A stretch of 64,000 bases of DNA from Psychrobacter sp. ANT_WB68 (GTDB lineage: Bacteria > Pseudomonadota > Gammaproteobacteria > Pseudomonadales > Moraxellaceae). Location: the NCBI RefSeq assembly GCF_008369115.1, contig NZ_VOAZ01000002.1, forward strand, positions 682,001 through 746,000. Direction: 5' to 3'. Positions 3,636 through 36,932 of the stretch are shown in pieces. Positions within the stretch are counted from its first letter, which is position 1. Every line of letters starts with the position of its first letter. Made by a program: the position numbers and the translations under genes. The notes below the pieces were generated by a model. That model saw only the letters and a program-made list of their open reading frames with translations, was not told where the DNA came from and searched no databases.

Positions 3636-3902
3636 GACGATCAGAGATGATAACGCCGGACTCAGTAATCTTACCTTTGTCATACCAACAGAATGCTGAG
3701 TCTGCGACAATACAGAGACGGTTCATTATCTATCAACACCCATTACTAACAGTACCATCTAACAAAACTAAAAAATACCAAAGCCTAATATGCTATTTCT
3801 TGTCATGTTTTTTCATCGAAGTGTCATATCTGATAGATACACTGCTGACCTACGCCAGATAAGTAATTAAATGGATGATTATAAGCGATTGGGTGAGTGG
3901 CT

Positions 3903-4673: not shown

Positions 4674-4689
4674 CTATAGATAAAAGCCA

Positions 4690-4984
4690 TCATGCTTGCT
4701 GATCTAAGGCGATGACTGCCTTTTTTAACCAAGTCCCAGCCTTACCTAAAGGCTTTTCTTTATGCCAAATGAGCTCAACCGCAACGGGCCAACTGTGCTT
4801 ATCAAAATCCAGTTTTGGTGATACCAAAGAGCCATCTTTTAACGCATCAACAAGAATATGCTCAGGTACTAACGCCCAGCCAAGGTTACGTTGGACAAGC
4901 TCAATAATCACCCACTGACTCTCAACCCACCACACATCAGCGGCAACCCGACGCTAGCCATTTTGTTTGGCAGCTATAGATTGT
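4690..4984 (-). pseudogene. LysR-family regulator relic (C-terminal effector domain)
   Basis: The frame encodes WWVESQWVIIELVQRNLGWA, then LVPEHIL, a segment typical of the C-terminal substrate-binding domain of LysR regulators, and ends after KKAVIALDQQA. Going upstream, the frame reads RVAADV and then an in-frame TAG near 4950, preceded by AAKQNG that still resembles the family. The DNA-binding half is missing. This is a truncated, inactive copy. Confidence 0.7.
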
Positions 4985-5155
4985 CTGTCGGTATCAATTT
5001 ATTGTATTAATAATGAATACTGAGAGGTTGTATATTGAACAAAAGATAAGTATTAAAAATATCATAACTGGTTACGATTATTTAAAAACAGTTTTAGTGG
5101 ATAGTGAAAAAAAGGCGTATAAGTATTATCGTTACTCCTTTCATGGAATTAGGCT

Positions 5156-6916: not shown

Positions 6917-6995
6917 CCAAATATTCACTAATTAAGTATTAACTAAAAACGGTACGATTGCTGCATTTATAGTTGCATGAGTGACAAGGAATATT

Positions 6996-7697
6996 ATGAA
7001 ATACATTATTGCAGGTTTAGGTAGCTTTGGTTCTTCATTGGGCATGGCGCTGACGAGCCAAGGCCATGAAGTCATCGCCATTGATAGCAACATGCAAAAA
7101 GTTGAAGCTTATAAAGAAGCAATCACTCATACTATCTGCATGGATGCTACCGACGAATATACGGTTAATGGCTTGCCTATTATGGATACCGATATAGTGG
7201 TGGTGGCCATTGGTGAAAATGAAGGGGCTAATATTATGGCAACGGCGCTGTTTAAAACCCTAAAAGCCCGGCGCTTAATCAGTCGTAGTATCAATCCTTT
7301 ACATGAAAAAGTGCTACAAGCGATTGGGGTTGATGATATTTTTCATCCTGAAAAAGAATCGGCGATGCGCTGGGCAAAACGTCTATCGCTACGTTATTTC
7401 GTCGACTCGTTTAGTTTAACGGAACACTTTAGTATCGTTGAGATTAGTATTCCAGATATTTTAGTTGGAAAAACGATTGCAGCGTTACAAATGGAACATA
7501 AATTCAATCTTAAACTGCTAAGCACCATGCGCTATGAGCATTATGAAGACAGCTTTGGTCGTCGTCAAAGTAAACCCAGCATTCAGGGATTAGCCACACC
7601 AGAGCAAGTGCTACAAGATAAGGATGTGCTGGTGGTGTATGGGGCTAATAAACATATCAATAACTTCTTACGTAGTGTAGGGGTTAAAGTACACTAA
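6996..7697 (+). CDS. ktrA: KtrA/TrkA-type RCK regulatory subunit, 233 aa
   Basis: Cytoplasmic nucleotide-binding ring protein that gates KtrB. The N-terminal Rossmann fold has IIAGLGSFGSSLG at residues 4-16 and an acidic residue (VIAIDS) near 35. A C-terminal TrkA-C-like region begins near 140. The start at ATG 6996 is chosen because AAGGA lies five bases upstream; a GTG at 6981 would add five residues. One RCK domain only, as in KtrA rather than the two-domain TrkA. Confidence 0.9.
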   Translation: MKYIIAGLGSFGSSLGMALTSQGHEVIAIDSNMQKVEAYKEAITHTICMDATDEYTVNGLPIMDTDIVVVAIGENEGANIMATALFKTLKARRLISRSINPLHEKVLQAIGVDDIFHPEKESAMRWAKRLSLRYFVDSFSLTEHFSIVEISIPDILVGKTIAALQMEHKFNLKLLSTMRYEHYEDSFGRRQSKPSIQGLATPEQVLQDKDVLVVYGANKHINNFLRSVGVKVH

Positions 7698-21815: not shown

Positions 21816-23429
21816 CTAGACAAGCTTTTTTGCCTTTTGATGTAGTCGCTGAGCGGCATCCATGCCAGATAAAATTGCGCCTTCTTGCCATGCTGGGATA
21901 TGTGAGCAGTGTTCACCCGCCAGCACGATACGGTGATCAATCGCGCATAGCGTATCGTAGTACTGATTACGGCTCGATTCACTCCAGATACCATAGCAAC
22001 CGAGCGACCATGGAATACGATGCCAAGCGACCGAGGTTCCAGAGCGGAACTCTTTGGTATATTGCGGATGAATATGTTTGCCATACTGTAGTGCCGCATC
22101 AATACGCTCTTTTGGATTAAGGGTATTAAATTTATAAGAGGCTTCCCCAAATCCATAGGCGCCAAGTAGCACCCCTGAGCCTGTGGTAAACATATCGTGT
22201 GAGGGATAGGAGATTTGGGAGATGGGCATATCGGTATAGCTGATACCGCCATAAATCCACTCGTCTTCTTCCCAAAATCGGCGTTTGAACTCTAAACCTA
22301 CTTTATAAGAGGTGTCATAAGGGACCGCTGCCATCGCTTGCTTCATTGGTGCTGAGACGTTAATGTCAATCTGGGTCAATACCGACAATGGAATATTGCA
22401 AATACACCAGTCAGCACGCACGGTTTTAGTGGCGCCATCAGGATTGTTACTATTGCTGCTACTATCGACGTAATCAACAGTGACGCCGCTCTCATCTTGA
22501 TAAATCTTAGTGACTTTAGCGTTGAACCTAATCAGGTCTCGGCATTCGCGAGTGAAGGCATCACCGATTTTTCCCATCCCGCCGACAGGTTGGAACATCG
22601 CTGGTTGATGGTCATATATCGTATAGTTGCTATAAATATCTGACCACATGCCTGAATTTAATAGTTTGTTCATCGGTATCGGTGTCGAGGGCTTAGCATC
22701 AGGCATGAGCCCGCCACCCGGATAAACGCTATAACCACGATGCTTGCTGGTTTCATGGCTCTTAACATAGCGATAATTATTATCAAGGACACCCCAACCT
22801 TTTAAGCCTTCTAATAGCTTTTCTTTGTCCTCTTTACTGACTGTCTTATCCAGGCTACCGGTATTAACCGCTTTAGATAATAGCTCTGAGACATAACCGC
22901 GGATATCGCTTTGTACCTCGCCTAAGCGCTGCGGTGCGCCATTAAAATGGCTGGTACGGTGCAAATAGGCGCGGTCATTAGTTTGTATAAAGGGCTGTAA
23001 TGCCACACCGAATTTTTTACAATAATGGAATACCGCATAATGATGCACCGGTAGCCGCCATGGCCCACCGTTAAAGTAGTTGCCTTTTTTAAAGTCACAA
23101 GTTACCTCGCCGCCACCAAGCTCGGTATATTTATCACCTGCGTTTAGTGTCCAACTGCGCCCACCACCGCGATTTTGAAACTCAAGAACCGTCACTTTAT
23201 AGCCAGCTTTACGTAGCTCATAAGCAGCGGTGAGCCCGCCCAATCCTGCGCCAAGTATCACAATGCTCGCACCAGCAGGCGCACCCTTTAAATCCATCTC
23301 TTTTTTAAAGCTAGATTCAGAAGCAAACCCTAACGTAGTCATCGCTTGATACATTGCAGTCGCTCCTGCGGTCTTACCAATCATTGACAGCAGTTGCCGG
23401 CGTGTGGGCGATTGAAGCATATCATTCAT
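21816..23429 (-). CDS. Tat-exported flavin amine oxidase, 537 aa
   Basis: An FAD-dependent amine oxidase of the monoamine/polyamine type. The N-terminus SPTRRQLLSMIGKTAGATA is a twin-arginine signal. The FAD fold has VILGAGLGGLTAAYELRKAG near residues 57-76 and NRGGGRSWTL near 87-96; C-terminal LAGEHCSHIPAWQEGAILSG closes the FAD site. Being periplasmic and between two cytochrome c genes, it probably passes electrons to cytochromes rather than only to oxygen. The amine substrate cannot be told from sequence. Confidence 0.85.
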   Translation of the reverse strand: MNDMLQSPTRRQLLSMIGKTAGATAMYQAMTTLGFASESSFKKEMDLKGAPAGASIVILGAGLGGLTAAYELRKAGYKVTVLEFQNRGGGRSWTLNAGDKYTELGGGEVTCDFKKGNYFNGGPWRLPVHHYAVFHYCKKFGVALQPFIQTNDRAYLHRTSHFNGAPQRLGEVQSDIRGYVSELLSKAVNTGSLDKTVSKEDKEKLLEGLKGWGVLDNNYRYVKSHETSKHRGYSVYPGGGLMPDAKPSTPIPMNKLLNSGMWSDIYSNYTIYDHQPAMFQPVGGMGKIGDAFTRECRDLIRFNAKVTKIYQDESGVTVDYVDSSSNSNNPDGATKTVRADWCICNIPLSVLTQIDINVSAPMKQAMAAVPYDTSYKVGLEFKRRFWEEDEWIYGGISYTDMPISQISYPSHDMFTTGSGVLLGAYGFGEASYKFNTLNPKERIDAALQYGKHIHPQYTKEFRSGTSVAWHRIPWSLGCYGIWSESSRNQYYDTLCAIDHRIVLAGEHCSHIPAWQEGAILSGMDAAQRLHQKAKKLV

Positions 23430-23505
23430 TTTATTATCCTTATTATAGAACCGTCATCCATGACATCAGGTAGTAATAGCTGGATTAATAGTGGGGTTAA
23501 TAGCA

Positions 23506-24861
23506 CTACTTTAAGATGTGTTTGACGTCAGCAGCACTCACATTACTACTTGGTAAACCACCGAAATTTATCCGCACGTAATTGGTAATACTGGCAATCT
23601 GCGCATGAGTTAATTCTTTCTCAAAGCCGGGCATTTTGGGTGCTGTGTTTAACGCACCTTTAGCACCATACGCAATGACATTAATGAGCGCGTCTGGCTT
23701 AATGCGGCGAATACTACTCAGTCCTACGATAGAAGCGTAACGAGCATCGGGCTGCGCGTATCCATCTACCCCGTGACAGCTCCCACAGGCAGCAAGATAT
23801 AGCGCTTTTGGTGAGTTGCGGTCGTTATTGAAATCAGCATTAGTCGCTTTTGCCTTTGCTAAATAGTCTTTTTGCTCGATTAAATTGTAGGTAATAGAAC
23901 GACTTACTGGGTTTGGCAGTCGTGACGTATCTACGGGTATCACATAATCGTCCGTCTTGATGATAGGGACGACTTTTAGATAAGCAGCCATTGCGCTTAG
24001 GTCTTCATCGCTGAGATAGCGTGTACTGTGGGCGACGGCTTCAGCCATTGGTCCACCCGCATAAGCCCGTTTATCCAGCAAACCGGTACGTAGATAAGTG
24101 GCGATATCACTTTCGCTCCAACGCCCTATACCACTGTCATTATCTGGGGTGATATTGGGCGCATACCACTTACCAAGCGGCGCGCCAGATAAATACTTGT
24201 CTTTATCAAGACCTTGCGTGAGGTTGCGCGGGGTGTGACAAGTGCCACAATGTTCTAAGTTATTCACCAGATATTCACCGCGTTGCTGAGTTTGGGTGAG
24301 ACCTGTACGGTTCTCTGTAGAAGGTACATTAATCACATTCCAAGCCAACATTAGAGTGCGAATATTTAAGGGGAAGGGCAATCTAGTAGTTTTTTCAGGT
24401 GACTCCTCTACTAGAGGTACAGTTTGAAAGTAGGCAAATAACGCACTGATATCCGCATCAGCCATCCCATGATAAGACGGATATGGCATCGCAGGATAAA
24501 GCTGATGCGTGGGTGCACGACCTTTTTGCAGGGCTTTTTTAAAGTCAGTTTCAGTATAGTTGCCGATACCATAACGTTGAGAGGGTGTGATATTGGTTGA
24601 GTAAATATTACCAATCGGTGTTTCAATCGCGACGCCACCGCTATAGTCATCGCGATGACACGCCATACAATCAGCAGTACGGGCAATATAGGCGCCGCGA
24701 TTGGCCAAATCGCTATTTAAGGGGCTTACATTAGGTAAGTTAGTAGCGGGGCTGATATTGAATAGGCTCGTCGCATGAGGTAAATGTGAGCTATCAGCCA
24801 TGACAGCGCTGGAAGCCATAATAAGCGTAAGTGCTGATAACATTATAGGATTTGGCTTCAT
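23506..24861 (-). CDS. Triheme cytochrome c (dehydrogenase electron-transfer subunit type), 451 aa
   Basis: Sec signal peptide, then three cytochrome c domains with heme sites CMACH near residue 63, CGTCH near 208 and CGSCH near 362. The arrangement resembles the cytochrome subunits of membrane-bound alcohol/gluconate dehydrogenases. It is 76 bases upstream of the amine oxidase gene in the same operon and is the natural partner for electron transfer from that flavoenzyme to the respiratory chain. No C-terminal membrane anchor was seen. Confidence 0.88.
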   Translation of the reverse strand: MKPNPIMLSALTLIMASSAVMADSSHLPHATSLFNISPATNLPNVSPLNSDLANRGAYIARTADCMACHRDDYSGGVAIETPIGNIYSTNITPSQRYGIGNYTETDFKKALQKGRAPTHQLYPAMPYPSYHGMADADISALFAYFQTVPLVEESPEKTTRLPFPLNIRTLMLAWNVINVPSTENRTGLTQTQQRGEYLVNNLEHCGTCHTPRNLTQGLDKDKYLSGAPLGKWYAPNITPDNDSGIGRWSESDIATYLRTGLLDKRAYAGGPMAEAVAHSTRYLSDEDLSAMAAYLKVVPIIKTDDYVIPVDTSRLPNPVSRSITYNLIEQKDYLAKAKATNADFNNDRNSPKALYLAACGSCHGVDGYAQPDARYASIVGLSSIRRIKPDALINVIAYGAKGALNTAPKMPGFEKELTHAQIASITNYVRINFGGLPSSNVSAADVKHILK

Positions 24862-24949
24862 AATATACTCACAAGGCTAGGAAAACTCATTTTTAATTGT
24901 TTTAGCTATGACTTTTTGACACGTTTATTGCTTATCGAAGCTAAAAAGA

Positions 24950-25564
24950 CTACTGTTTAGCCGCTTCAACTTGAATGTTTAAAGTCAGGTTTTTAGTCAT
25001 TCCAAATAAGACGTATTTTTTGATATTCCACTGAGTACGGTCAATGGTGGCAGTAAAACTGCCACCACATACCGTTCTATTAAGTGGGGAACTCAGATAG
25101 CAATTAAATTTGGTTGCCAGTAAGCTAATAGGGTGGGTCTGACCGTTTAAGGTGAGTTTGCCATCCACTCGTGTGACTTTTGGGTTTTCTTTGTCAGAGG
25201 TGAAATGCCATTTGGTAGATTCAAAATGAGCCAATGGAAATTGTTCCATATTAAAAAAATCAGGCCCCATCAGTTTAAGAGTGAATCCTTTATTGGCTGT
25301 AGTTAAAGATTTTATGGGAATAATAAGTGAGATATCACCGGTTTTTGCGCTCGGGTCATACTGGAGTATTCCCGTCACATTATAGAAGCCGCCAGTGGTG
25401 GCAGAGGTTTTGAGGTGGTCAATAGCGAAGCGTACGTTGGAGGTGTCAGGCTCAATTTTATAGGTAGCGGCATGGCTACTAACCGTAAAACCTATCAGAA
25501 ATAATAGTGTCCCTAATGGCGTGCAGTAACGTAATACGGCTAGGTCAAATAGAAATTGACTCAT
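24950..25564 (-). CDS. YceI-family periplasmic protein, 204 aa
   Basis: A signal region ends near SHAATYKIEPD. The mature protein has the YceI lipocalin-like pattern: YKIEPDTSNVRFAIDHL, DPSAKTGDISLIIPIKSL, LMGPDFFNMEQFPLAHFEST, and GKLTLNGQTHPISLLATKF. YceI proteins bind isoprenoid lipids or quinones. First gene of the operon with two cytochromes c and an amine oxidase, where a quinone-linked role would make sense; this is inference. Confidence 0.88.
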   Translation of the reverse strand: MSQFLFDLAVLRYCTPLGTLLFLIGFTVSSHAATYKIEPDTSNVRFAIDHLKTSATTGGFYNVTGILQYDPSAKTGDISLIIPIKSLTTANKGFTLKLMGPDFFNMEQFPLAHFESTKWHFTSDKENPKVTRVDGKLTLNGQTHPISLLATKFNCYLSSPLNRTVCGGSFTATIDRTQWNIKKYVLFGMTKNLTLNIQVEAAKQ

Positions 25565-26011: not shown

Positions 26012-26710
26012 CTAGACAGCCACACCAAATAGTCGTCCAATCAATGACGTCGCTACCATCGCTAGCACACCCCAAATAACCACCCGAGCAGTAGCAGGAA
26101 TAACAGGTGCACCGCCCAAGCGAGCCGAGATTATCCCAAGTAGTGCTAAGCCTACTATCGTCAAAGTCGCGAGTGACCAAACCAGTGTTTGTGCTGGCAA
26201 CAGCAGAATACCAATAATCGGCAATATTGCGCCAGCAATGAATGATAATCCAGAAGCAACTGACGCATGAATCGGCTTAGCTTGACTCAGATCTGTTAAG
26301 CCAATCTCATCTCGGGCATGAGCCTCAAGGGCATCATGCTCGGTCAAAGCCACAGCAACTTGATGAGCCAATACGTGATCCAGTCCCCGTGTCTCATAAA
26401 TTTTTGTCAGCTCAATAAGCTCACGCTCTGAGTTATGAGTCAGTTCATGCCGCTCTTTATCCAAATCCGCCTTTTCGGTATCTGCTTGAGACGATACTGA
26501 AATATACTCTCCAGCCGCCATCGATAACGCACCCGCGGTCAATGCTGCCATTCCTGTTAATAGCAATGTTTGACTACTTGTACTTGCTGCAGCCACACCG
26601 ACTAATAGACTGGCGGTTGAAATCAATCCATCATTTGCACCCAGGACTGCCGCCCTTAACCAATGATTGCGATTGCTTAAATGTATTTCATCATGAATAG
26701 AGTGCTGCAT
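26012..26710 (-). CDS. VIT1/CCC1-family iron/manganese transporter, 232 aa
   Basis: Membrane protein of the vacuolar-iron-transporter family. The N-terminal helix reads LRAAVLGANDGLISTASLLV, the family hallmark; ALSMAAGEYISVSSQADTE follows; the cytosolic metal-binding helical segment (EKADLDKERHELTHNSEREL) is rich in acidic residues. Three further helices are at the C-terminus. It exports or stores Fe2+/Mn2+. ATG 26710 is chosen because GAGGGT lies four bases upstream; a TTG at 26722 extends the frame. Confidence 0.9.
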   Translation of the reverse strand: MQHSIHDEIHLSNRNHWLRAAVLGANDGLISTASLLVGVAAASTSSQTLLLTGMAALTAGALSMAAGEYISVSSQADTEKADLDKERHELTHNSERELIELTKIYETRGLDHVLAHQVAVALTEHDALEAHARDEIGLTDLSQAKPIHASVASGLSFIAGAILPIIGILLLPAQTLVWSLATLTIVGLALLGIISARLGGAPVIPATARVVIWGVLAMVATSLIGRLFGVAV

Positions 26711-26816
26711 AGATACCCTCAAACGGTGTCGACATAGATTTTAATATACTAGTGTAGCTTATAATTTCACATCAATTTAGACAACTTGATAAAGATTAAT
26801 ACCATTTCATATATAG

Positions 26817-27500
26817 TCACTTAGCTTGTTTTAGCGCCACTAATCGATAGGTCATCAGTACAAAGACTGTCGTTTGACTAGCTGCATAAAATAACAATAG
26901 AGGCAGCGCTCGACTGTCTGAGCCTACCATAAATACATGAATGCTAATAAACATATAAGCCAAAAAGGTCAGAAAGTGTAGCCAGCGCCATGCTGATTGT
27001 CCAATATACTTCTTAATATAAAAGCTAAAAGCGCAGATGAATAATAGCCAAAACCCCAATTGTCCTAATGCAACGCCCACACGCTCAGTTTGGAAACCAA
27101 AAGGCAGTAAAATTTGCCATAAGTTAAGATTTAAGAAATTATCTGCTAATAAGATACCCGCATGGAACGCGGCAAAACCCACTGCTATCAGACTTAAATA
27201 CTGATGTAAGGCAAATACTCGTGCCATATTAAAATGCTTGCCTAAACGAGTGCTGAGCAATAAACCAAAAACGACTGCCAGCCAAAATAACGTATAAGCG
27301 ATAACACCACTTGCCCGTGATAAATACCAGAAATGTTTATCCGTGGCTGTCAGTAGCTGAGAAACGGTCTCTCCCCAAGTTAACAACGCATAGCTGCCGA
27401 TCCCGATAGCAATGCTTAAGATTAAGCCAATCGATAGCACTTTAGTAAGAAGGGTTGTATTGGAAGCAGTATGACTGCTGGCAGGGTTATCGGTGTGCAT
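26817..27500 (-). CDS. Ferric-reductase-like transmembrane protein, 227 aa
   Basis: Six predicted membrane helices with the ferric reductase-like heme-binding pattern: HFWYLSRASGVIAYTLFW, ALHQYLSLIAVGFAAFHAGI, and WRWLHFLTFLAYMFISIHVF, giving paired His residues for two b-hemes. There is no cytoplasmic FAD/NAD domain, so it is a stand-alone heme membrane unit, as in MsrQ-like proteins. Last gene of the PepSY-ApbE operon; the start has AGGAG eight bases upstream. Probably moves electrons across the inner membrane. Confidence 0.82.
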   Translation of the reverse strand: MHTDNPASSHTASNTTLLTKVLSIGLILSIAIGIGSYALLTWGETVSQLLTATDKHFWYLSRASGVIAYTLFWLAVVFGLLLSTRLGKHFNMARVFALHQYLSLIAVGFAAFHAGILLADNFLNLNLWQILLPFGFQTERVGVALGQLGFWLLFICAFSFYIKKYIGQSAWRWLHFLTFLAYMFISIHVFMVGSDSRALPLLLFYAASQTTVFVLMTYRLVALKQAK

Positions 27501-27566
27501 GGCTATGCTCCTATGAATGATGGCTTTACTTAATGTATTGATATCTAGCGCCTGTAACGTGGTCAG

Positions 27567-28715
27567 TTAACCAGCAATCAAGTGTGGCTGTACTAAATTT
27601 GGCTGTACTAAGCTTGGGCGCATGGCAGAGGTCACCAACACTTTGTTATTCGTATCGATTAAGAGCGCAGCAATATCATGTTTATTAAGCCATGCCATCG
27701 CCTCTGTAACGCCAAGAAGCACGCAGTATTTTGCGTAGACCTCTGCGATTAGCGTATCTGTGGCAAGTACGGTAGCGGTTAGGATATCACTGCCTACTGG
27801 ACGAGAATAATGAGGGTGGATTAAATGGTGTTGCCAACGACCGTCGTGCCACCAGCGACGATAGTCTTGCCCAGATGTGGCGACAGCACCAGAGCTAAGG
27901 GCAAGAATGGCGACATCTTCTTCCTCTTGAATGTGTTCACTATTAGAAAAGTAAGGTTTGGCAATAGCAACTCCCCAAATAATTGGTTTATCTATTCGGT
28001 GTTTTGGAACGCCAATCGCGATATCTCCACCCATATCTACTAAGCAAGGAAGTTGCCAGTCATGAACGTGGCTAATATGCTCAGCCAGTTGCATGGCGCA
28101 CCAGCCTTTGACGTAACCATTCAAATCCAGCGCCATTCCCGCTGGCAGGTATACTTGATGCTTTCCATCAGCTAACTGGCGCAGCTGAATACGTCCTATC
28201 TGCTGACTGTCATTGCTCGCCCTAGGGATATCTTGCAAGCTTGCACTGGTATTTAAGGTCATATTTGAGGATGTATTTGAGCTAATCTTCGAGCCAGTCA
28301 TGGGCGCGGATGGCATAGACATTTTGGGTAAAGTCTCAAATGAATATTTGTAGCCAGTATCCCAAAGTTCTTTCAGTAAAGTCGGAGTTACCAAACCTTG
28401 AGTCTTTGAGGTAAAGTGAATCGCGCGCTGTAAAACCTCGAATAATTCTGGGCTCACCTTAATCCATTGGTTGGTTTGGTTATTCAGTTGCATCAGCTCA
28501 CTGGTCTCATCAAAACGACTGAAAATTTGTTCCCATTGCGCTATGCGTTTTTGAACATCACTTGTTAGCAAAGCAATCTGTTGATCTATTACTATCTGTG
28601 AATAACGCGGGTTAAGCCTTGTGGTATTTAAGTTGATTTGAATATGACAACCCATGGCGAATAGTTTAATCGTTGCCAGCTCAGATGTGTTTTTATTGGG
28701 CATATTGGTTTTCAT
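27567..28715 (-). CDS. apbE: ApbE-type FAD:protein FMN transferase, 382 aa
   Basis: ApbE attaches FMN to Thr/Ser of target proteins. Motifs: FAMGCHIQINL near residue 19, FSRFDETSELMQLN, DLNGYVKGWCA, VDMGGDIAIG and ALSSGAVATSGQDYRRW near 270. The His-Pro segment HHLIHPHYSRPV and ATDTLIAEVYAK contribute the metal and flavin site. Oddities: no signal peptide or lipobox, although most ApbE proteins are periplasmic; a Ser/Thr/Asn-rich insertion near residues 125-165; and a C-terminal repeat of LVQP. It lies between a small membrane protein and the ferric-reductase-like gene. Confidence 0.85.
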   Translation of the reverse strand: MKTNMPNKNTSELATIKLFAMGCHIQINLNTTRLNPRYSQIVIDQQIALLTSDVQKRIAQWEQIFSRFDETSELMQLNNQTNQWIKVSPELFEVLQRAIHFTSKTQGLVTPTLLKELWDTGYKYSFETLPKMSMPSAPMTGSKISSNTSSNMTLNTSASLQDIPRASNDSQQIGRIQLRQLADGKHQVYLPAGMALDLNGYVKGWCAMQLAEHISHVHDWQLPCLVDMGGDIAIGVPKHRIDKPIIWGVAIAKPYFSNSEHIQEEEDVAILALSSGAVATSGQDYRRWWHDGRWQHHLIHPHYSRPVGSDILTATVLATDTLIAEVYAKYCVLLGVTEAMAWLNKHDIAALLIDTNNKVLVTSAMRPSLVQPNLVQPHLIAG

Positions 28716-28770
28716 TTGCCATTTCCTTTACCACAAACTTAAATTCAGTCACCGTTAACTTCCTCTTCAC

Positions 28771-29097
28771 TTATTGAGAAGAACGTGTACGGGCGACCAC
28801 TCTTATTGCCTGGGCAGGCTCTACTTCATTGACCTGTCGCAACTGGCTGATATCAACGATGGGCATTGGCTCAACAGCCATCTCGCTATTCTGAGAGACG
28901 GTAGTACTCAACAAAGCGGTATCTATAGCTGGCGTATCTGTCTCTTGATTGAGTAATACTAGCCATCCCGCCATCGTGCCTGCAATCGAGACAATCATAA
29001 TGCTGCTCTTAAGAGTGACAAAAGGATCTGCTTTTTTAACAGCTTTAGTAGTGGCTATATTAAGGCCTTTAGCCTGATGTGATTTGGTATTAGTCAT
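28771..29097 (-). CDS. Small single-pass membrane protein of unknown function, 108 aa
   Basis: A basic cytoplasmic N-terminus, one helix (SSIMIVSIAGTMAGWLVLL near residues 35-53), then a periplasmic tail rich in Ser, Val and Pro, ending VVARTRSSQ. The start MMTNTK overlaps the stop of the upstream PepSY gene by eight bases, with GAGGATAG as ribosome site inside that gene, so translation is probably coupled. I know no family. The operon suggests a role with the PepSY and heme proteins. Confidence 0.65.
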   Translation of the reverse strand: MTNTKSHQAKGLNIATTKAVKKADPFVTLKSSIMIVSIAGTMAGWLVLLNQETDTPAIDTALLSTTVSQNSEMAVEPMPIVDISQLRQVNEVEPAQAIRVVARTRSSQ

Positions 29098-29650
29098 CAT
29101 AGCTATCCTCATCATGTTGCTGATAGCTGGTAGCGATTAAACGCTCACTGTCTTTATAACGTTTATCGTCGTGTTTTTTGCTGCGGTGTTTATCATCTTT
29201 ATGTTTGTCAGCATGCTTATCATCATCGCGATGCTTATCTTTATCGTCATCGTGATCATCGTCTTCATCAAAGCCCTCAGCACGATAGTCACTAGTAACA
29301 GTTGAGCTAGAAACTGGATTTAGAACGGCACCAAGATTGGCATCAATATAAGTAGCGCCACTGTCTAATAGCACTTCATAGACAGCTGTGCCGTTATAGT
29401 TGATAAGCTCTGGGGTCGCCTGCAATATCGAATTAGGAGATTCTTGTTTGGCAAGCGCGGTTGCTTGCGCAGCGCTGAGGGCAGCAAGCGATGATGGCTG
29501 GGTAGATTGAGATTGTGTGACGAGGTTTGCCACTGATAGGACGTTATCAGCGTTAGGCGACTGGGTAGATAAGGCAATGACGCCACCAAAAAATACCAAT
29601 GAGGTCGCACCGACAGTCAATAATAAGGGTTTTAATAGAGGTAGGCTCAT
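29090..29650 (-). CDS. PepSY-like secreted protein with Asp/His/Lys-rich tail, 186 aa
   Basis: Signal anchor or signal peptide at residues 1-27. Residues 55-105 form a PepSY-like unit (AQATALAKQESPNSILQATP then NGTAVYEVLLDSGATYIDAN). The rest is extremely charged: DEDDDHDDDKDKHRDDDKHA and further His/Lys/Asp runs to about residue 170, a likely metal-binding tail. It includes SGAT, the core of ApbE flavinylation sites, though without the usual upstream Asp. Start 29650 has GGAG eight bases upstream. First gene of its operon, preceded by a two-half-site box. Confidence 0.7.
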   Translation of the reverse strand: MSLPLLKPLLLTVGATSLVFFGGVIALSTQSPNADNVLSVANLVTQSQSTQPSSLAALSAAQATALAKQESPNSILQATPELINYNGTAVYEVLLDSGATYIDANLGAVLNPVSSSTVTSDYRAEGFDEDDDHDDDKDKHRDDDKHADKHKDDKHRSKKHDDKRYKDSERLIATSYQQHDEDSYDD

Positions 29651-29703
29651 AGCATGTACTCCGTATATGTTAGTAGGGAATACAAACAGCATACGGGGTG
29701 AAT

Positions 29704-29720
29704 ATTAACTCAAGCTTAAG
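29704..29720 (-). promoter_or_regulatory. Response-regulator box before the PepSY-ApbE operon
   Basis: On the minus strand it reads CTTAAG, five bases, GTTAAT. This has the TTAA-N7-TTAA form bound by PmrA/QseB-type regulators. It lies 54-70 bases upstream of the PepSY start, a suitable place for an activator site near the -35 region. Confidence 0.55.
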
Positions 29721-29738
29721 ACCACTTATTTTAACTTT

Positions 29739-31217
29739 TTATAGCTCATTTTTATTTCTGACTGTTACGATAAAGCCAGTCTCTGGTTGAGAGCGGTTAG
29801 CAAACTCTAACGTGAGACCGTGAAGCTGTGCTATTCGATTGGCAATTGATAGTCCAAGACCGCTACCTAATTGGCTTTGACCTGCTGGACGATAAAAGCG
29901 TTCGCTTAACCGAGTGAGTTGTGCTGGCTCTACACCTAAGCCGTTATCGACCACTCTAATCGCACTACTATCAAGTTGAAGCTCAATCGATGAGCCTTCG
30001 GGACAATAGCGAATAGCATTGTCTAACAGGTTGCGAATTAACAGTTTAAATAAAACTGGATTAATAAGGATAGGTAGAATATCAGCAGGACTGTCACAGT
30101 TCACGGTGCGTTTTAATTGAATGTGCTTTTCACGAGCGAGACGATTGACATCACTCAGCACTATATCCGTAAGCATCAACCAGTCTGGACTTTCTAATTG
30201 CTCAGGGGGCAATTGTTGTTGCGGTTCTATTTTGGCCAAAATCAGCAGTTGATCAACTAAATGAGTGGCACGTTCAATGCCATTACTAATTTTCTGGGCA
30301 TGATAAAATAGCTGATTCTCATCTTCCACGCCAGATTCTAAGCCAGACAACTGCAATATCTGCTGCTGCAATAAATCAGCTTGTAGTTTTAATGCCGCTA
30401 GCGGACTTCTAAGCTCATGCGAAGCATCGGCGGTAAAACGTTGCTCACGTGCTAGCGTGTCAGCGACTTTTACAAATAAAACGTTTAAGGCAGTTACTAA
30501 AGGCTGAATCTCTTTGGGTACATCGGCGGTGATGGGACTATCGTCTTGCGGTTGACGCTGTTCGAGCGCCGCACTTATCTGAGTTAACGGCATAAATCCA
30601 CGTCGAATCAATAGAATAACCAAAGCCATAAATGCAAATAGGCCAATCAACATTGGTAGTACTTGTACTGACATGGCATCAACAATCATCCCTTGGCGAG
30701 ATTTTAGGTTCTGACCGACGGCAATCACCCGACCTTCGTACTTATCGTCATGATCATCATGCACATAAAATAAACGCCAGCGCTTACTAAAAGGGTTCAG
30801 GCGCTGATAGGCAGAATCCTGTTCTTCTAAAAATCCATGCTGGTCTGGCAAAAAAGCAAATGACTCACCATTTTCATCAGCCATCAATAGGCGTCCTTTT
30901 TTATCCCAAATGGCAAAGCCCATATAGTCATCTTCAGCCTCGCCAAGGTCACCTGATAGCTGCTTACTTTTTAAATTATAGATTTTGGCCGCATGCTTTT
31001 TATTATGTTTACTTTCGTCTTGTTCATCATGGTCTTTATCATGCGCTTCTTTAGGGGCGATACCGATTAAGTAACGGGCAACTTGGGTAATCTGCGTATC
31101 ATTCATCTCATTGATTTCGTGCCATAAACGCCACGCAATAAAGCTAGAGGTGAGTACCCAAAGCAGGGGTAGACCAATCAGTAGAGATGTTAATAGCCGT
31201 TGCTGGATACTTTTCAT
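29739..31217 (-). CDS. Sensor histidine kinase, QseC/PmrB type, 492 aa
   Basis: Two membrane helices (residues about 8-28 and 180-200) enclose a periplasmic sensor. The sensor has two His/Asp-rich patches: EAHDKDHDEQDESKHNKKHA near residue 55 and VHDDHDDKYEGR near 150, suggesting metal binding. The kinase core has SHELRSPLAALKLQ (phospho-His), NLLDNAIRYCPEG, DNGLGVEP and GSGLGLSIANRI. ATG 31217 is preferred over 31229. It follows its response regulator gene by about 80 bases. Confidence 0.9.
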   Translation of the reverse strand: MKSIQQRLLTSLLIGLPLLWVLTSSFIAWRLWHEINEMNDTQITQVARYLIGIAPKEAHDKDHDEQDESKHNKKHAAKIYNLKSKQLSGDLGEAEDDYMGFAIWDKKGRLLMADENGESFAFLPDQHGFLEEQDSAYQRLNPFSKRWRLFYVHDDHDDKYEGRVIAVGQNLKSRQGMIVDAMSVQVLPMLIGLFAFMALVILLIRRGFMPLTQISAALEQRQPQDDSPITADVPKEIQPLVTALNVLFVKVADTLAREQRFTADASHELRSPLAALKLQADLLQQQILQLSGLESGVEDENQLFYHAQKISNGIERATHLVDQLLILAKIEPQQQLPPEQLESPDWLMLTDIVLSDVNRLAREKHIQLKRTVNCDSPADILPILINPVLFKLLIRNLLDNAIRYCPEGSSIELQLDSSAIRVVDNGLGVEPAQLTRLSERFYRPAGQSQLGSGLGLSIANRIAQLHGLTLEFANRSQPETGFIVTVRNKNEL

Positions 31218-31296
31218 AGGCTCACACATTAGGAGATGAAGTGTTAGAGGGTAAAGTGGATAAGCTAAACGTAGACGTAAGTCCTATTAGTGACTG

Positions 31297-31971
31297 CTAA
31301 CCACGGCTATAGACTGGATTGAGATAATAGCCGATACCGCGTTTGGTCAAGATAAAATCATTGCCCAGCTTTTTGCGTAAATGATGGATATGTACTTCAA
31401 TGGCATTACTTTCGATATCTTGTTGCCAACCATATAGCTTGTCTTCTAAACTTGCTCGGCTATGTATCTGCTTAGGATGGGTCAGCATTTGCTCTAATAT
31501 GGCCACTTCCTTGACGGTCAATTCAACGGTTTGACCTTGATAAGAGACTTGCTGAGTGTGAGGGTGATAGGACACTTCGCCATAGCGGATTTCAGGCTGA
31601 CTGCGTCCCTGACTGCGTCGCATTAAGGCTTGCAGACGGGCAATGACTTCATCTAAAGCAAACGGCTTGACCAAATAATCATCAGCACCAGCATTGAGTC
31701 CAGCCACACGATTGGCAATCGCATCGCGTGCCGTGATAATCAATACTGGTGTGTCTATCTGTTTGGCTCGCCAGTTTTGCAGTACAGTCATACCATCACC
31801 TTTTGGTAAGGTCAAATCAAGCAGCACCGCATCAAACATGGCCTCTTGCAGCGCCATTTCACCTTGCTTGGCATCACTAAACCAATCGACCATCATGCCG
31901 TGACTTTTTAGCCCAAGGATGATGCCTTCAGCAATGGTAATATCGTCTTCTATCAATAATATGCGTGCCAT
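31297..31971 (-). CDS. OmpR-family response regulator, QseB/PmrA type, 224 aa
   Basis: Receiver domain with acidic pocket LIEDD at the start, phospho-acceptor Asp in AVLLDLTLPKGDG near residue 53, and conserved Lys in DYLVKPFALDE. The C-terminal winged helix ends with SNAIEVHIHHLRKKLG and KRGIGYYL. Pairs with the kinase that follows. The TTAA-type half-sites ahead of the two neighbouring operons suit this regulator subfamily. Confidence 0.93.
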   Translation of the reverse strand: MARILLIEDDITIAEGIILGLKSHGMMVDWFSDAKQGEMALQEAMFDAVLLDLTLPKGDGMTVLQNWRAKQIDTPVLIITARDAIANRVAGLNAGADDYLVKPFALDEVIARLQALMRRSQGRSQPEIRYGEVSYHPHTQQVSYQGQTVELTVKEVAILEQMLTHPKQIHSRASLEDKLYGWQQDIESNAIEVHIHHLRKKLGNDFILTKRGIGYYLNPVYSRG

Positions 31972-31990
31972 GTTTATTCCATCGCTTCGT

Positions 31991-32617
31991 TTATTTCACA
32001 TCGGACGGCTTATCCGTCACCGTTTTCTTGCCCGTTATCATTGATTTAATCAGGTTTTGGCGTTGCCAATAACTCATGGCAATCGCAGCGACGATATGTA
32101 AAGGAACAAGCAAATATAAACTGTTGGCTAATAACTCATGTATTTCTTCAAGCACATCTTTATTACCAAGCAGCTGTATGCGACTAAAAATATCTGTTTC
32201 CATCAGATAGCCGGTGACTCCTAACCCTATAATCACTGCCCATAACGATAGCATCATAATGGCTGCCAATGGGTTATGACCGAGGTGCTGTTCATCAACC
32301 TGGCGAACATTTAAAGCTGATAGGTGATGTTTAAGTCGTGCCGGTGTGGGGAAGAAATTGGTAAAGCGTGCATAGCGTGTCCCTACTAAACCCCAAAGTA
32401 AGCGTACAACCACTAATCCTACCACGGTATAGCCTACATAGACGTGAAGGTCGCTGCCGTCTTCGGTAAAAAGTAGATTAGCAATAATACCAGCCGCGAC
32501 TGTCCAGTGGGTAATTCTTACTAAGATGTCCCAGACTTTTACCTGCTTAGTTTTAGACGTATTGGGTGAGTTTATAATAGAGTCGTCGACCACATCAATC
32601 ATGTCTTGTTGGCTCAT
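31991..32617 (-). CDS. Cytochrome b561-type membrane protein, 208 aa
   Basis: Four helices of the cytochrome b/b6 (Ni-hydrogenase b subunit type) family. Likely heme-ligand His residues occur in RITHWTVAAGI, SDLHVYVGYTVVGLVVVRL, and LVPLHIVAAIAMSYWQR. These proteins exchange electrons between quinones and periplasmic partners. It is the first gene of the cytochrome b-regulator-kinase operon, 20 bases before the regulator gene. Confidence 0.88.
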   Translation of the reverse strand: MSQQDMIDVVDDSIINSPNTSKTKQVKVWDILVRITHWTVAAGIIANLLFTEDGSDLHVYVGYTVVGLVVVRLLWGLVGTRYARFTNFFPTPARLKHHLSALNVRQVDEQHLGHNPLAAIMMLSLWAVIIGLGVTGYLMETDIFSRIQLLGNKDVLEEIHELLANSLYLLVPLHIVAAIAMSYWQRQNLIKSMITGKKTVTDKPSDVK

Positions 32618-34358: not shown

Positions 34359-34769
34359 TTAATCAAAATTAGCATTGGCTTGCATCTTATAGTCAGTCTT
34401 TTATGCATAAAACACAATGTATTTAAAATCATTAGAAAGAAATACATAATCAACAGACTTTCGAGCGTAATTGATTAAGGGCGTCAAAGACATTAATAAT
34501 GATACGGGATTTAGTCGTTCGACGAGTGATGATATGGTTAATAGAAACTTTGGTCGATACAATCGATTCAATAGTGTTTTAACTAATATCAATATCTAAT
34601 CAAGTTAAATATAGCTAGAATTAAGAAGCTCGCTGTTGCTTTTAATCGCACTAGCGTAGTTGGTACATAAGAATCTGCATGCTAAATAACAGTAAGGAAT
34701 GTCTGCGTAGTATATAAGTTCGTCTTATTAAATTGGATGTGTGCTTTTCATAGAGAGAGAGTAATAATC
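34359..34769. other. Intergenic, no gene seen
   Basis: Divergent promoter region between the esterase and the first Sel1 gene. A+T-rich, no supported ORF, RNA gene or strong hairpin found. Confidence 0.4.
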
Positions 34770-35993
34770 ATGCCTACATTTAAAACTTCTATCATTCATA
34801 AAATACTAATTTTAAGCTTATCGCTCGGGCTGACCTTCTCAGCGGTTGCGGCAGATTTTTCACCAACTCAAACGTTGGCGGAGCAAGGAGTTGCTGATTC
34901 TCAATATCGCCTTGGTTTTAAATACTATATCGGCAAAGGCGTTGAGCAAGATTATGCCAAGGCATTCGAATGGTATTTAAAGGCTGCTAATCAAGGTAAT
35001 GTTGAGGCTCAAAATAATCTTGGCGAACTATACGATAAAGGCAAAGGTGTTGAGCAGGATTCGGCTAAAGCTTTTGAGTGGTATCTGAAAGCAGCAGAGA
35101 AGGGCAATGCTAAAGGGCAGTTCAATGTTGGTGCTCTTTATCACAAAGGTGAAGGGGTCGAGCAGAGTGATAGCAAAGCCATAGAATGGTACTCAAAATC
35201 TGCTTCTCAAGGGAATGAAGGCGCTAAAAATAACTTACAGCTCCTAAACCTTAATAAAGAAAATAGACCTCAAAACCCAGCTAAAACGATTGAATGGCTA
35301 ACCAAAGCCGCTAACGAAGGTGATGCGAATGCTCAGTTTGAACTTGGGGTTTTGTATCATGAAGGTGATGGAGTAACACAAGATTATAGCAAAGCTGTTG
35401 AATGGCTCACCAAAGCGGCTGATCAAGGACAAGTAAAAGCCCAGTACGTTCTCGGAGCTATGTACTACTTTGGCAGAGGGGTTGAGCAAGATTATACCAA
35501 GGCTAGGGAGTGGTGGCAGCAATCAGCCGATCAAGGTTATGACGAAGCTCAGTACAACCTTGGGGTTATGTACAGTCATGGCGAAGGCGTTGCTCAAAGC
35601 CATAGCAAAGCGTTTGAGTGGTATCAAAAAGCGGCCAAACAAGGACAAGTCGATGCTCAAAATAATCTTGGGGTCATGTATGAAAATGGCAGCGGCATTA
35701 CTAAGGATTATGTGAAAGCGTTTGAATGGTATCAAAAGTCTGCGTCTCAAGGCTTATCTGAAGCCCAATACAATCTGGCATGGATGTTTGAGAATGGCTA
35801 TGGTGTAAAGAAAGATTATAAGCAAGCGTTTAACTGGTATCTCAAAGCGGCTAAGCAAGGTGATGCCATGGCAGCATATGTCATCGGTACGATGTACAAC
35901 TATGGTAGAGGTGTGGCGCAAGATAAATCTCAAGCCGATATATGGTTAAATCAAGCTTGTGGGAATGGGGTAGAAATGAGCTGCAATCAGTAA
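34770..35993 (+). CDS. Secreted Sel1-repeat protein, 407 aa
   Basis: Sec signal peptide ending near FSAVAADF, then about ten Sel1 repeats of roughly 36 residues with the pattern A-x-x-x-L-G-x-x-Y-x-x-G-x-G-V-x-Q-D-x-x-K-A-x-x-W-x-x-K-A-A. One repeat (near residues 160-175) is degenerate with an inserted NLNKENRPQNP. Sel1 proteins are solenoid scaffolds for protein interaction. Start at ATG 34770 gives the signal peptide directly; an upstream start at 34737 would bury it. The last repeat ends in a Cys pair (ACGNGVEMSC). Confidence 0.87.
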   Translation: MPTFKTSIIHKILILSLSLGLTFSAVAADFSPTQTLAEQGVADSQYRLGFKYYIGKGVEQDYAKAFEWYLKAANQGNVEAQNNLGELYDKGKGVEQDSAKAFEWYLKAAEKGNAKGQFNVGALYHKGEGVEQSDSKAIEWYSKSASQGNEGAKNNLQLLNLNKENRPQNPAKTIEWLTKAANEGDANAQFELGVLYHEGDGVTQDYSKAVEWLTKAADQGQVKAQYVLGAMYYFGRGVEQDYTKAREWWQQSADQGYDEAQYNLGVMYSHGEGVAQSHSKAFEWYQKAAKQGQVDAQNNLGVMYENGSGITKDYVKAFEWYQKSASQGLSEAQYNLAWMFENGYGVKKDYKQAFNWYLKAAKQGDAMAAYVIGTMYNYGRGVAQDKSQADIWLNQACGNGVEMSCNQ

Positions 35994-36098
35994 CAGCTGC
36001 TTTTTCGAGAACACTTAATTAATAAAGCGTTTCGCATATCCGCTGTATCTAGGCAAAATCTTTATCATTATGAGCGTCTGTATTATTAAGGATAAGCC

Positions 36099-36932
36099 AT
36101 GACTGTCTCTATGCTGAAAACGATTGTTATCCATACAATGATGATACTAGCTTTATGGTTTGGACTAGCTGTGCCAGTCATAGCTTCAGACTTTGCAACC
36201 ACTAAGCTGAAAGCGGAACAAGGGTATGCTGATGCCCAGTACCGCCTTGCGCTAATGTACGACTATAGCGAGGAAGTAGAGCAAGATTATTCTCAAGCCT
36301 TTAAGTGGTACCAAAGGTCTGCTAATCAAGGATATGCAAACGCGCAATATAATCTTGGTTGGATGTATAAAAACGCTCATGGTATGCCAGAAGATAATAC
36401 AAAGGCGGTTGAGTGGTATTTGAGAGCCGCCAACCAAGGTTATGCGTCGGCTCAAGCCACGCTTGGTTCAATGTACTATAGTGGTAAAGGGGTTGCTCAA
36501 AGTTATGCCAAAGCCCTTGAGTGGTATTCGAAGGCTGCCAACCAAGGAAACGCAGTCGGTCAGTATAATATGGGAATAAGCTATTACCAGGGGCTGGCCT
36601 TACCTCAAAACTATGAGAAGGCTGTCGAATGGTATCAAAAAGCTGCGGATCAAGGTCTGTCAGACGCACAATATAATCTAGGTCTTATGTTTGAGGAAGG
36701 AGAAGGGGTCAGTCAAGATTATAACAAGGCGCTGAAGTGGTACCGAGACGCTGCAGATCAAGATGATGCCGATGCTCAGTATCGCCTTGGGGTCATGTAT
36801 GAAGCAGGAAAAGGCGTTGCTAAGGACAAAGTCGAAGCACAAGAGTGGTATCAAATCGCTTGTAATAACGATTATGCAAAAGGCTGCAAAGCCTATGATA
36901 GGCTAAATGCGAAAGAGCTGCGCCGTCATTAA
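36099..36932 (+). CDS. Secreted Sel1-repeat protein, 277 aa
   Basis: Signal peptide ending near VPVIASDF, then about six Sel1 repeats (for example EWYLRAANQGYASAQATLGS). It has the same layout and C-terminal Cys pair (ACNNDYAKGC) as the 407-residue neighbour 105 bases upstream. The two are probably paralogues made by tandem duplication with repeat-number change. Own ribosome site AAGGATAAG. Confidence 0.87.
   Translation: MTVSMLKTIVIHTMMILALWFGLAVPVIASDFATTKLKAEQGYADAQYRLALMYDYSEEVEQDYSQAFKWYQRSANQGYANAQYNLGWMYKNAHGMPEDNTKAVEWYLRAANQGYASAQATLGSMYYSGKGVAQSYAKALEWYSKAANQGNAVGQYNMGISYYQGLALPQNYEKAVEWYQKAADQGLSDAQYNLGLMFEEGEGVSQDYNKALKWYRDAADQDDADAQYRLGVMYEAGKGVAKDKVEAQEWYQIACNNDYAKGCKAYDRLNAKELRRH

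What the first reader, a model, noticed from the sequence alone, without database searches (positions are those of the whole stretch)
26817..32617. Two-component-controlled flavin/heme electron module: PepSY, ApbE, ferric-reductase-like protein, cytochrome b
One operon makes a PepSY-like metal-binding-looking secreted protein, a small membrane protein, ApbE and a heme membrane protein. The adjacent operon makes cytochrome b, a response regulator and a kinase. No separate FMN-bind-domain protein is present, so what ApbE flavinylates is open. The set looks like a transmembrane electron route to a periplasmic acceptor, perhaps metal. I do not know a characterised system with this composition.
Basis: inference. 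Interest (0 to 1): 0.7.

Follow-up and report, generated by a model that had tools for sequence, protein, structure and literature searches.

The report
Heme reductase with predicted flavin-tipped peptide
In a Psychrobacter genome, a two-component system of metal-sensing type sits in one gene row with a membrane heme protein, an enzyme that glues flavin onto proteins, and a tiny membrane-anchored protein whose conserved tail looks like that enzyme's missing target; the same trio occurs in very different bacteria, so a small, easily tested new way of carrying electrons out of the cell may have been overlooked.

Summary
In detail: seven same-strand genes (cytochrome b561, response regulator, kinase, PepSY-like, single-TM protein "TM114", ApbE, six-TM heme protein "Fre"). 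Of 17 fetched genus relatives, 14 keep the order. PepSY-TM114-apbE-fre is a unit: a clade nested among carriers appears to have lost it, leaving the kinase next to VIT1. FMN_bind occurs at most once per genome, DUF2271 in none of 60, so this ApbE, predicted cytosolic, lacks a known substrate.

I found a candidate. In 11 other genera (plasmid records; Actinomycetota, Bacillota, Deinococcota) apbE-fre is preceded by a single-TM protein (interrupted in one genus). Counting Psychrobacter, 7 of 11 genera with an intact one end in [ST]-[RK]-[small]-S (TRSS, TRGS, TRAS, TRTS, TKGS, SKAS), near ApbE's [ST]GA[ST]. Of 226 TM-bearing ORFs in 25 plasmid loci, eight (six genera) end so, all directly upstream of apbE. 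TM114 keeps T-x-S-S in 18 of 18.

Best reading: a metal-linked electron route in which cytosolic ApbE flavinylates TM114's tail before export and Fre reduces it. Flavinylation is inferred, not shown; the motif is post hoc. New variant of "MsrQ-like" flavinylation systems.

The parts
31991..32617 (-). cytochrome b561-type membrane heme protein (first gene)
   Evidence: PF01292 92.3 bits; first gene in 14 of 17 fetched relatives
31297..31971 (-). OmpR-type response regulator, QseB-like
   Evidence: Response_reg + Trans_reg_C; QseB 256 bits, below cut-off 345
29739..31229 (-). sensor kinase, QseC-like, with a D/H/K-rich stretch in its periplasmic domain
   Evidence: HisKA, HATPase_c; the charged stretch is visible in the orthologues printed, weaker in the three cassette-free ones, not shown for L045
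29090..29650 (-). secreted PepSY-like protein with D/H/K-rich tail (ORF opens at 29692; ATG at 29650 preferred)
   Evidence: PF03413 E 8.5e-5, just under cut-off; one hydrophobic segment; charged tail in the 18 aligned orthologues
28771..29115 (-). TM114: single-TM protein, predicted N-in/C-out, proposed ApbE substrate; overlaps the end of PepSY
   Evidence: one hydrophobic segment 37-55; T.SS[QR] C-terminus in 18 of 18; topology by the positive-inside rule, by eye
28774..28788 (-). C-terminal T-R-S-S-Q codons, proposed flavinylation site
27567..28715 (-). ApbE (FAD:protein FMN transferase family) without evident signal peptide
   Evidence: PF02424 157.6 bits; N-terminus max KD15 1.35 against 2.17 for the genome's own other ApbE
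27729..27743 (-). altered active/metal site E325..A328-K329 (D...T in classical ApbE)
   Evidence: invariant in 7 aligned members from three phyla; aligned to D and T of solved ApbEs
26817..27500 (-). Fre: six-TM ferric-reductase-superfamily heme protein, His 99/113/175/188, no NAD/FAD domain
   Evidence: four His invariant in 11 proteins; six hydrophobic segments; weak PDB match to entry 8qt6, an FAD-binding FR-type protein, E 0.001
26012..26722 (-). VIT1-family transporter, linked downstream gene
   Evidence: PF01988 219 bits; adjacency

Best explanation
This is a regulated transmembrane electron-transfer module tied to iron/manganese handling. A periplasmic metal or redox cue is read by the QseBC-like pair, possibly with the D/H/K-rich PepSY protein as metal-binding accessory; the pair drives the redox cassette and VIT1. 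A cytosolic ApbE attaches FMN to the C-terminal T-x-S-S (TRSS) of TM114, the last Ser of the four being the likeliest acceptor; the tail is then exported while the N-terminal helix stays in the membrane. Fre (two heme sites), perhaps fed by cytochrome b561 or quinol, reduces this tethered flavin on the periplasmic side, and the flavin reduces an acceptor, most plausibly Fe(III) or another metal, whose reduced form VIT1 moves. Shown by sequence: operon, co-loss, heme-ligand pattern, absence of FMN_bind and DUF2271 partners, conserved tail and its place next to apbE. Inferred: flavinylation, its cytosolic timing, electron direction, regulation, metal.
For: Seven-gene order in 14 of 17 loci. PepSY-TM114-apbE-fre absent as a block in three genomes that form one clade (100/100) nested among carriers (100/99, 100/100) in the HK tree. 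One FMN_bind in each of the 19 Fre genomes, in the window's genome about 4 kb from the other ApbE and an NqrM-like ORF (recognised by eye); DUF2271 0 of 60. Canonical [ST]GA[ST] absent from the orthologues scanned of cyb, RR, HK, TM114, Fre and VIT1; PepSY 8 of 18, ApbE 1 of 17. TM114 ends T.SS[QR] in 18 of 18. Eight of 226 TM-bearing ORFs in 25 plasmid loci end [ST][RK][ASGT]S.{0,2}; all eight are the ORF upstream of apbE, in 8 of the 15 apbE-fre loci, six genera; none in the other 10 loci. Seven of 11 genera match that pattern (0.07 expected by shuffling), 11 of 11 the looser [ST].[ASGT][ST].{0,2} (1.8 expected). Cnuibacter, fetched after the hypothesis was noted, ends TTKGS: not the strict TRxS then written, but T-basic-small-S. 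Published: [ST]GA[ST] is the ApbE site, Asp-to-Ala has minor effect, Gly-to-Ala leaves about half, terminal tags work best, cytosolic ApbEs exist (PMC12052999, passages). VIT1 adjacency; VIT or CCC1 genes also lie within the fetched flanks of the Deinococcus, Alicyclobacillus, one Rhodococcus and the Cnuibacter clusters.
Against: The canonical motif is absent: Gly is replaced by Arg/Lys/Gln/Ser. ApbE is predicted cytosolic but the tail extracytoplasmic, so flavin would have to be added before export. The ApbE has Glu for the catalytic/metal Asp and Lys for the nearby Thr, so activity is not assured. The motif was defined post hoc; Lys was admitted after seeing Cnuibacter and Mycolicibacterium, and the strict TRxS end holds in 5 of the first 10 genera. 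Gordonia, Alicyclobacillus, Rhodococcus and Streptomyces fail the stricter pattern. The upstream proteins share no overall similarity: the Nonomuraea one is 235 aa and the Alicyclobacillus one holds a peptidoglycan-binding domain. The two most divergent Psychrobacter tails read TTQSSR and TRTSSSQ. VIT genes also lie beside ApbE of the DUF2271 type and in Xanthobacter, so VIT linkage is not specific. No experiment bears on the metal or the direction of VIT1. DUF3570, Flavodoxin_4 and FMN_red type substrates were not searched.
Confidence: 0.5

Rival explanations
1. TM114 is an assembly or docking subunit: its conserved C-terminus binds Fre or ApbE, and ApbE modifies something else or acts on free flavin.
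For: Small single-TM proteins often act as assembly subunits (general knowledge); a conserved C-terminus is typical of docking; ApbE and tail are predicted on opposite sides of the membrane.
Against: The tail repeats positions 1, 3 and 4 of the ApbE motif (T-x-small-S) in proteins otherwise unlike each other. In two Fre loci without apbE (L150, and L151 with a weak Fre match) no such ORF was found.
Confidence: 0.2
2. The ApbE is not a transferase any more but a cytosolic FAD-binding partner (or FAD hydrolase) that feeds electrons to Fre, which lacks its own NAD/FAD domain.
For: The Asp and Thr of the classical site are replaced by Glu and Lys in 17 of 17 Psychrobacter ApbEs and several relatives; Fre has no dehydrogenase domain here.
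Against: A Ser and a His that align with the published triad are kept; many Gram-positive relatives carry NuoF-like and ferredoxin genes or a fused NAD domain as well as ApbE, so electron input is already provided there.
Confidence: 0.12
3. The PepSY protein is the ApbE substrate, at LLDSGAT.
For: A near-canonical site in the window's own protein and in 8 of 18 orthologues in all.
Against: Orthologues in the same operon read NSAT, SGTT, SGTA, NTT, SGTS, SGPV, DGVT; the Asp is not at the Dxx position; the annotated flanks of the Gram-positive apbE-fre clusters list no PepSY gene.
Confidence: 0.08
4. No flavin carrier at all: the operon is a metal-stress response in which Fre and cytochrome b561 detoxify or sense, and apbE serves another, unlinked protein.
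For: Two-component, PepSY and VIT1 context fits metal stress; some known substrate families (DUF3570, Flavodoxin_4, FMN_red) were not searched.
Against: Where the cassette is complete, apbE lies between TM114 and fre (16 of 16 uncut loci) and is absent together with them; a second ApbE with a signal-peptide-like N-terminus lies near the FMN_bind protein.
Confidence: 0.1

Closest known systems
MsrQ-like flavinylation systems (Meheust et al. 2021, PMC8238504; start of abstract, passages, and sections 7 and 10 seen)
   Same: apbE next to a six-TM, two-heme PF01794-type protein; VIT1 in 153 of 1797 such clusters; mostly Actinobacteria
   Different: They typically hold an FMN-binding-domain gene, and the survey dropped genes without signal peptide or lipidation site; here no FMN_bind, an ApbE without evident signal peptide, a small TM protein with TRSS tail, plus PepSY, cytochrome b561 and a QseBC-like pair
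PepSY-like (FoxB-type) flavinylation systems with DUF2271 (same paper, and PMC11334425, passages seen)
   Same: membrane heme route plus ApbE, iron context
   Different: their PepSY is a three-TM protein (PF03929/PF16357), often with DUF2271; here the PepSY is a small secreted PF03413-like protein and DUF2271 is absent from all 60 genomes searched
Metal-responsive two-component system UzcRS and the PepSY metal binder UipA, as told in the review PMC8963506 (passages seen; the UipA paper itself was not held)
   Same: two-component control; a single-pass PepSY protein that binds uranyl
   Different: no ApbE-heme cassette is described in the passages seen
Cytosolic ApbE of Klebsiella with a soluble fumarate reductase (review PMC12052999, passages seen)
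   Same: ApbE without signal peptide acting in the cytosol
   Different: the substrate there is a soluble fumarate reductase with a canonical motif
apbE-fre clusters found here in Deinococcus, Arthrobacter, Rhodococcus, Streptomyces, Paenibacillus, Alicyclobacillus and others (plasmid records)
   Same: single-TM protein - apbE - fre, often a two-component pair and sometimes VIT/CCC1 nearby
   Different: many add NuoF-like and ferredoxin genes or a fused NAD domain; no cytochrome b561 or PepSY gene in the annotated flanks

Membership tests
MsrQ-like flavinylation system | PF01794 protein in a flavinylation gene cluster | tested here: inconclusive
   Window protein and its 11 aligned orthologues give no PF01794 match; five homologues linked by tblastn do pass
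MsrQ-like flavinylation system | six TM helices and two heme sites | tested here: met
   six hydrophobic segments; four His invariant in 11; heme binding itself not testable
MsrQ-like flavinylation system | ApbE or FMN-bind with signal peptide or lipidation site (survey filter) | tested here: not met
   17 Psychrobacter ApbEs, max N-terminal KD15 0.68-1.67 against 2.17 and 2.46 in two signal-bearing controls; other controls are low too; hydropathy only
MsrQ-like flavinylation system | FMN-binding-domain gene in the cluster (typical, not required) | tested here: not met
   single FMN_bind per Fre genome, elsewhere
ApbE flavin transferase | PF02424 domain | tested here: met
   157.6 bits, cut-off 25.6
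ApbE flavin transferase | Ser-His-Asp triad / metal site | tested here: not met
   aligned Ser and His kept, Asp to Glu, Thr to Lys; triad as told in PMC12052999
ApbE flavin transferase | FMN transfer activity | not testable with these tools
   needs biochemistry
Known ApbE substrates | Dxx[ST]GA[ST] site | tested here: not met
   TM114 0 of 18; tail T.SS instead
PepSY-like (three-TM) system | PF03929/PF16357 protein | tested here: not met
   only PF03413 at 23.2 bits, one hydrophobic segment
QseBC | NCBIfam equivalog cut-offs | tested here: not met
   350 of 475 and 256 of 345 bits: related, not the same
VIT family | PF01988 | tested here: met
   219 bits

The most novel reading that the evidence does not exclude
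A new, minimal class of ApbE substrate: a membrane-anchored protein flavinylated at the C-terminal Ser of a [ST]-[RK]-[small]-S tail by a cytosolic ApbE branch with an altered metal site (E..AK or N..ST), exported already carrying FMN, and acting as a tethered one-flavin wire for a heme reductase. It would occur in at least four phyla, is often unannotated (the ORF is missing from the incomplete PLSDB gene table in the Streptomyces, Cnuibacter, Gordonia, two Rhodococcus and two Arthrobacter loci), and would account for some orphan apbE genes.
Probability: 0.42. Interest if true: 0.78.

Novelty: new variant of a known kind. Interest (0 to 1): 0.63.

Why it matters
The 2021 survey (PMC8238504, section 7) still counted 670 genomes, 4% of its set, with an apbE but no known substrate. 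A short C-terminal tag on a small TM protein would be easy to miss: it lacks the canonical motif, usually has no known domain, is often not called as a gene, and its ApbE lacks the signal peptide that the survey asked for. If true, flavin can be loaded in the cytosol and exported on a protein tail, which removes the need for FAD export, gives a compact flavin tag with a different recognition rule, and offers a two-gene co-expression test. It also ties stand-alone heme reductases to VIT1 and two-component metal responses.

Tried and rejected
PepSY LLDSGAT as flavinylation site: rejected, not conserved. FMN_bind or DUF2271 elsewhere in the genome as dedicated partner: FMN_bind is present once in 58 of 60 genomes whether or not the module is there, DUF2271 in 0 of 60; DUF3570, Flavodoxin_4 and FMN_red types were not searched. 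VIT1 as a mere flank: weakened, because it follows the kinase directly when the cassette is missing. Pfam for Fre: no help. Wider searches: Fre profile in 293 genomes of the order (3 hits at E<=1e-10, all own genus) and 398 of the phylum (own genome only at E<=1e-5); ApbE profile in 398 of the phylum: 222 genomes match at E<=1e-30, but the next best scores 163 bits against 452 for the own one. Of 31 loci then scanned for a TRxS-ended ORF, 29 had none; the two are the window's own locus and an unremarkable frame in the viral locus L144; the same script's look at the metal site read only one locus and is not used. A sample drawn as the phylum of a MAG titled Planctomycetia: 1 of 294 at E<=1e-15, that MAG's own Psychrobacter-like contig. 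Viral contigs: one distant ApbE, not pursued. Promoter/terminator scan uninformative (12 promoter-like against 17.4 expected). Papers: no description of a TRxS substrate or of this operon in searches (open-licence library; listings, plus passages of four papers). Rows dropped: G056 marginal Fre match; Peribacillus kept out of the 11-genus counts because its upstream frame is interrupted by a stop (ends NTSRS) and its ApbE is annotated in two pieces; L041 shows as cassette-free in the HK tree only because of a contig break; three ApbE controls and Rhodococcus gave no readable metal-site segment (Rhodococcus read).

Full report
What is there. The window lies in a 3.12-Mb genome whose nearest named relatives are Psychrobacter. 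Seven genes run on the minus strand: cytochrome b561 (32617-31991), response regulator (31971-31297), sensor kinase (31229-29739), PepSY-like protein (29650-29090), TM114 (29115-28771, overlapping PepSY), ApbE (28715-27567) and Fre (27500-26817); VIT1 (26722-26012) follows after 94 bp. Fre has six hydrophobic segments and four histidines (99, 113, 175, 188) invariant in 11 homologues from four phyla. It is not matched by Pfam Ferric_reduct itself, but five homologues found by tblastn are.

Conservation. Of 60 genus genomes, 18 have the PepSY protein and 19 have Fre (20 matches; a marginal one in G056 dropped; G041's copy has a stop and stands beside VIT1 with no other cassette gene found in 16 kb), and all 18 are among the 19. 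Of 17 fetched loci, 14 keep the seven-gene order (cyb only partly matched in L030); L045 has all seven rearranged with cytochrome b561 directly before PepSY; L033 has only PepSY-TM114-ApbE-Fre-VIT1; L041 ends with its contig. The module without a checked cyb also sits on the 26-kb plasmid PsyG_26 of Psychrobacter sp. G. Outside the genus no close Fre was found in samples of 293 order genomes (3 hits, all own genus) and 398 phylum genomes (own genome only); the named-genome scan gave 30 loci, all Psychrobacter except one MAG titled Planctomycetia and two contigs of Vibrio hibernica.

The cassette is a unit, and VIT1 belongs to the neighbourhood. In L080, L082 and L083 (G003, G037 and G027 among them) the row is cyb-RR-HK-VIT1, with the four cassette genes missing. 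By coordinates, the six genomes with this kinase (E<=1e-100) but no Fre (G003, G024, G027, G037, G040, G051) all have VIT1 within about 95 bp of the kinase. In the kinase tree the three sampled cassette-free genomes form one clade (100/100) nested among carriers (100/99, then 100/100), so one loss is the simplest reading. VIT1 lies next to Fre in 14 of 19 Fre genomes (G041's remnant included); it is present anywhere in 17 of 19 Fre genomes and in 17 of 41 others.

The substrate question. The genome has a second ApbE with a signal-peptide-like N-terminus, near an NqrM-like ORF (recognised by eye) and about 4 kb from the only FMN_bind match. FMN_bind occurs once in 58 of 60 genomes and not at all in two; each of the 19 Fre genomes has exactly one. 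DUF2271 is absent in 60 of 60. Orthologues with a canonical [ST]GA[ST]: 0 of 16 cyb, 0 of 17 RR, 0 of 17 HK, 8 of 18 PepSY, 0 of 18 TM114, 1 of 17 ApbE, 0 of 17 Fre, 0 of 12 VIT1. TM114, in contrast, ends T-x-S-S-[QR] in 18 of 18 and VVARTRSS[QR] in 16 of 18, although its middle varies.

Distant relatives. tblastn against 72,556 plasmid records found apbE-fre pairs in 11 other genera: Streptomyces, Alicyclobacillus, Gordonia, Paenibacillus, Arthrobacter, Mycolicibacterium, Rhodococcus, Nonomuraea, Deinococcus, Peribacillus, Cnuibacter (regions 34-38, 43-46, 65, 66, 69-71, 100). The Nonomuraea record is 11.85 Mb and unannotated there; its Fre was read by eye from the translation. In ten genera the ORF just upstream of apbE has one strong hydrophobic stretch after a charged N-terminus; most have low-complexity tails, but the Nonomuraea one is a 235-aa protein and the Alicyclobacillus one holds a peptidoglycan-binding domain; in Peribacillus the corresponding frame is interrupted. 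C-termini: Deinococcus VVARTRGS, Arthrobacter TTTRAS, TSTRAS and TATRAS, Paenibacillus SSTRTS, Nonomuraea TFTRGS, Cnuibacter TTKGS, Mycolicibacterium SKASGG, Streptomyces MTRSGGS, Rhodococcus HARSAGS, Gordonia VHTAAS, Alicyclobacillus SASSP. The strict TRxS end holds in 5 of the first 10 genera examined, with shuffle probabilities of 0.0001-0.0034 for the tails that have it. Allowing Lys (post hoc) and two trailing residues, it holds in 7 of 11 genera against 0.07 expected; the loose [ST].[small][ST] holds in 11 of 11 against 1.8 expected; the canonical motif in 0 of 11. As a search without choosing the ORF, 226 TM-bearing ORFs of 40-250 aa from all six frames of 25 plasmid loci contain eight with that end; all eight are the apbE-upstream ORF, in 8 of the 15 apbE-fre loci (six genera, Arthrobacter three times) and in none of the other 10 loci. 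Those ten are seven ApbE loci without Fre (L102-L105, L108, L109, L149), the unannotated Cupriavidus locus L113, and two Fre loci without apbE (L150; L151, a weak match). Among ORFs of 150 aa or more in the same loci the pattern ends 1 of 524, which is the Nonomuraea protein itself.

The ApbE branch. Fre-linked ApbEs carry E..[AC]K (Psychrobacter 17 of 17, Streptomyces, Alicyclobacillus, Paenibacillus, Mycolicibacterium, Deinococcus), E..AT (Nonomuraea) or N..ST (Rhodococcus, Gordonia, Arthrobacter, Cnuibacter). Of five readable controls, three have D..AT, but Pantoea has D..TT and Staphylococcus E..ST, so Glu alone is not unique; three further controls gave no readable segment. N-terminal hydropathy of the Fre-linked ApbEs measured is 0.36-1.67, against 2.17 and 2.46 in two signal-bearing controls; other controls are low as well. 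A Ser and a His that align with the published triad are kept in the seven-member alignment (triad from PMC12052999).

Mechanism and its weak points. The simplest account is that TM114 is the ApbE substrate: positions 1, 3 and 4 of its tail fit [ST]-G-A-[ST], published tests tolerate loss of the Asp and partly of the Gly, and terminal tags are best. The difficulty is sidedness: ApbE looks cytosolic, the tail exported. Loading before export would solve it; a tatA-tatC pair lies upstream of the Peribacillus cluster, a single suggestive case. Electron input could be quinol or cytochrome b561; many Gram-positive relatives add NuoF-like and ferredoxin genes or NAD domains. The acceptor is inferred to be a metal from VIT1, PepSY and the acidic/His-rich kinase domain. 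The 2021 authors proposed assimilatory iron reduction for MsrQ-like clusters with VIT1; VIT genes also stand beside ApbEs of other types, and the direction of transport is not settled here.

Novelty. The composition falls near the MsrQ-like flavinylation systems (PMC8238504) but differs in the missing signal peptide on ApbE and the missing FMN-binding gene, and adds the tail protein. No paper found describes the tail or this operon.

Noticed in passing
L092 (NC_021668.1), 1-6421: The module with VIT1 sits on the 26-kb plasmid PsyG_26, next to a recombinase gene, so it can probably travel; a 'ferredoxin reductase family' gene lies elsewhere on the same plasmid.
   Followed up: partly
L057 and L072/L078: A MAG titled Planctomycetia and Vibrio hibernica B1.19 hold contigs with Fre 84-88% identical to the window's, probably contamination.
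   Followed up: no
G041, L086 about 6525-7127: A Fre remnant with a stop stands next to VIT1; PepSY, TM114 and ApbE were not found in the 16 kb: a decayed module.
   Followed up: partly
G006 and G012 kinases; L030 cyb: The kinase frame carries one stop codon in each although the cassette is kept; in G012 cyb is also only partly matched.
   Followed up: no
L106 2369-4890: Peribacillus asahii plasmid: tatA-tatC upstream of an apbE-fre cluster in which the carrier-like frame is interrupted and ApbE is annotated in two pieces.
   Followed up: partly
window 21816-25564: A FAD-oxidoreductase-like protein, a cytochrome c-like protein with three CxxCH motifs and a YceI-like protein follow VIT1; the same block follows VIT1 in L029, L031, L033 and, without the cassette, in L079 (G004).
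   Followed up: no
window 34737-36932: Two adjacent secreted Sel1-repeat-like proteins just upstream of the module (name recalled from the repeat pattern).
   Followed up: no
L093 3511-5130: Streptomyces plasmid: two Met/Gly-rich secreted proteins with MGMGM repeats before the unannotated TRSGGS carrier, beside a heavy-metal P-type ATPase; looks metal-related.
   Followed up: no
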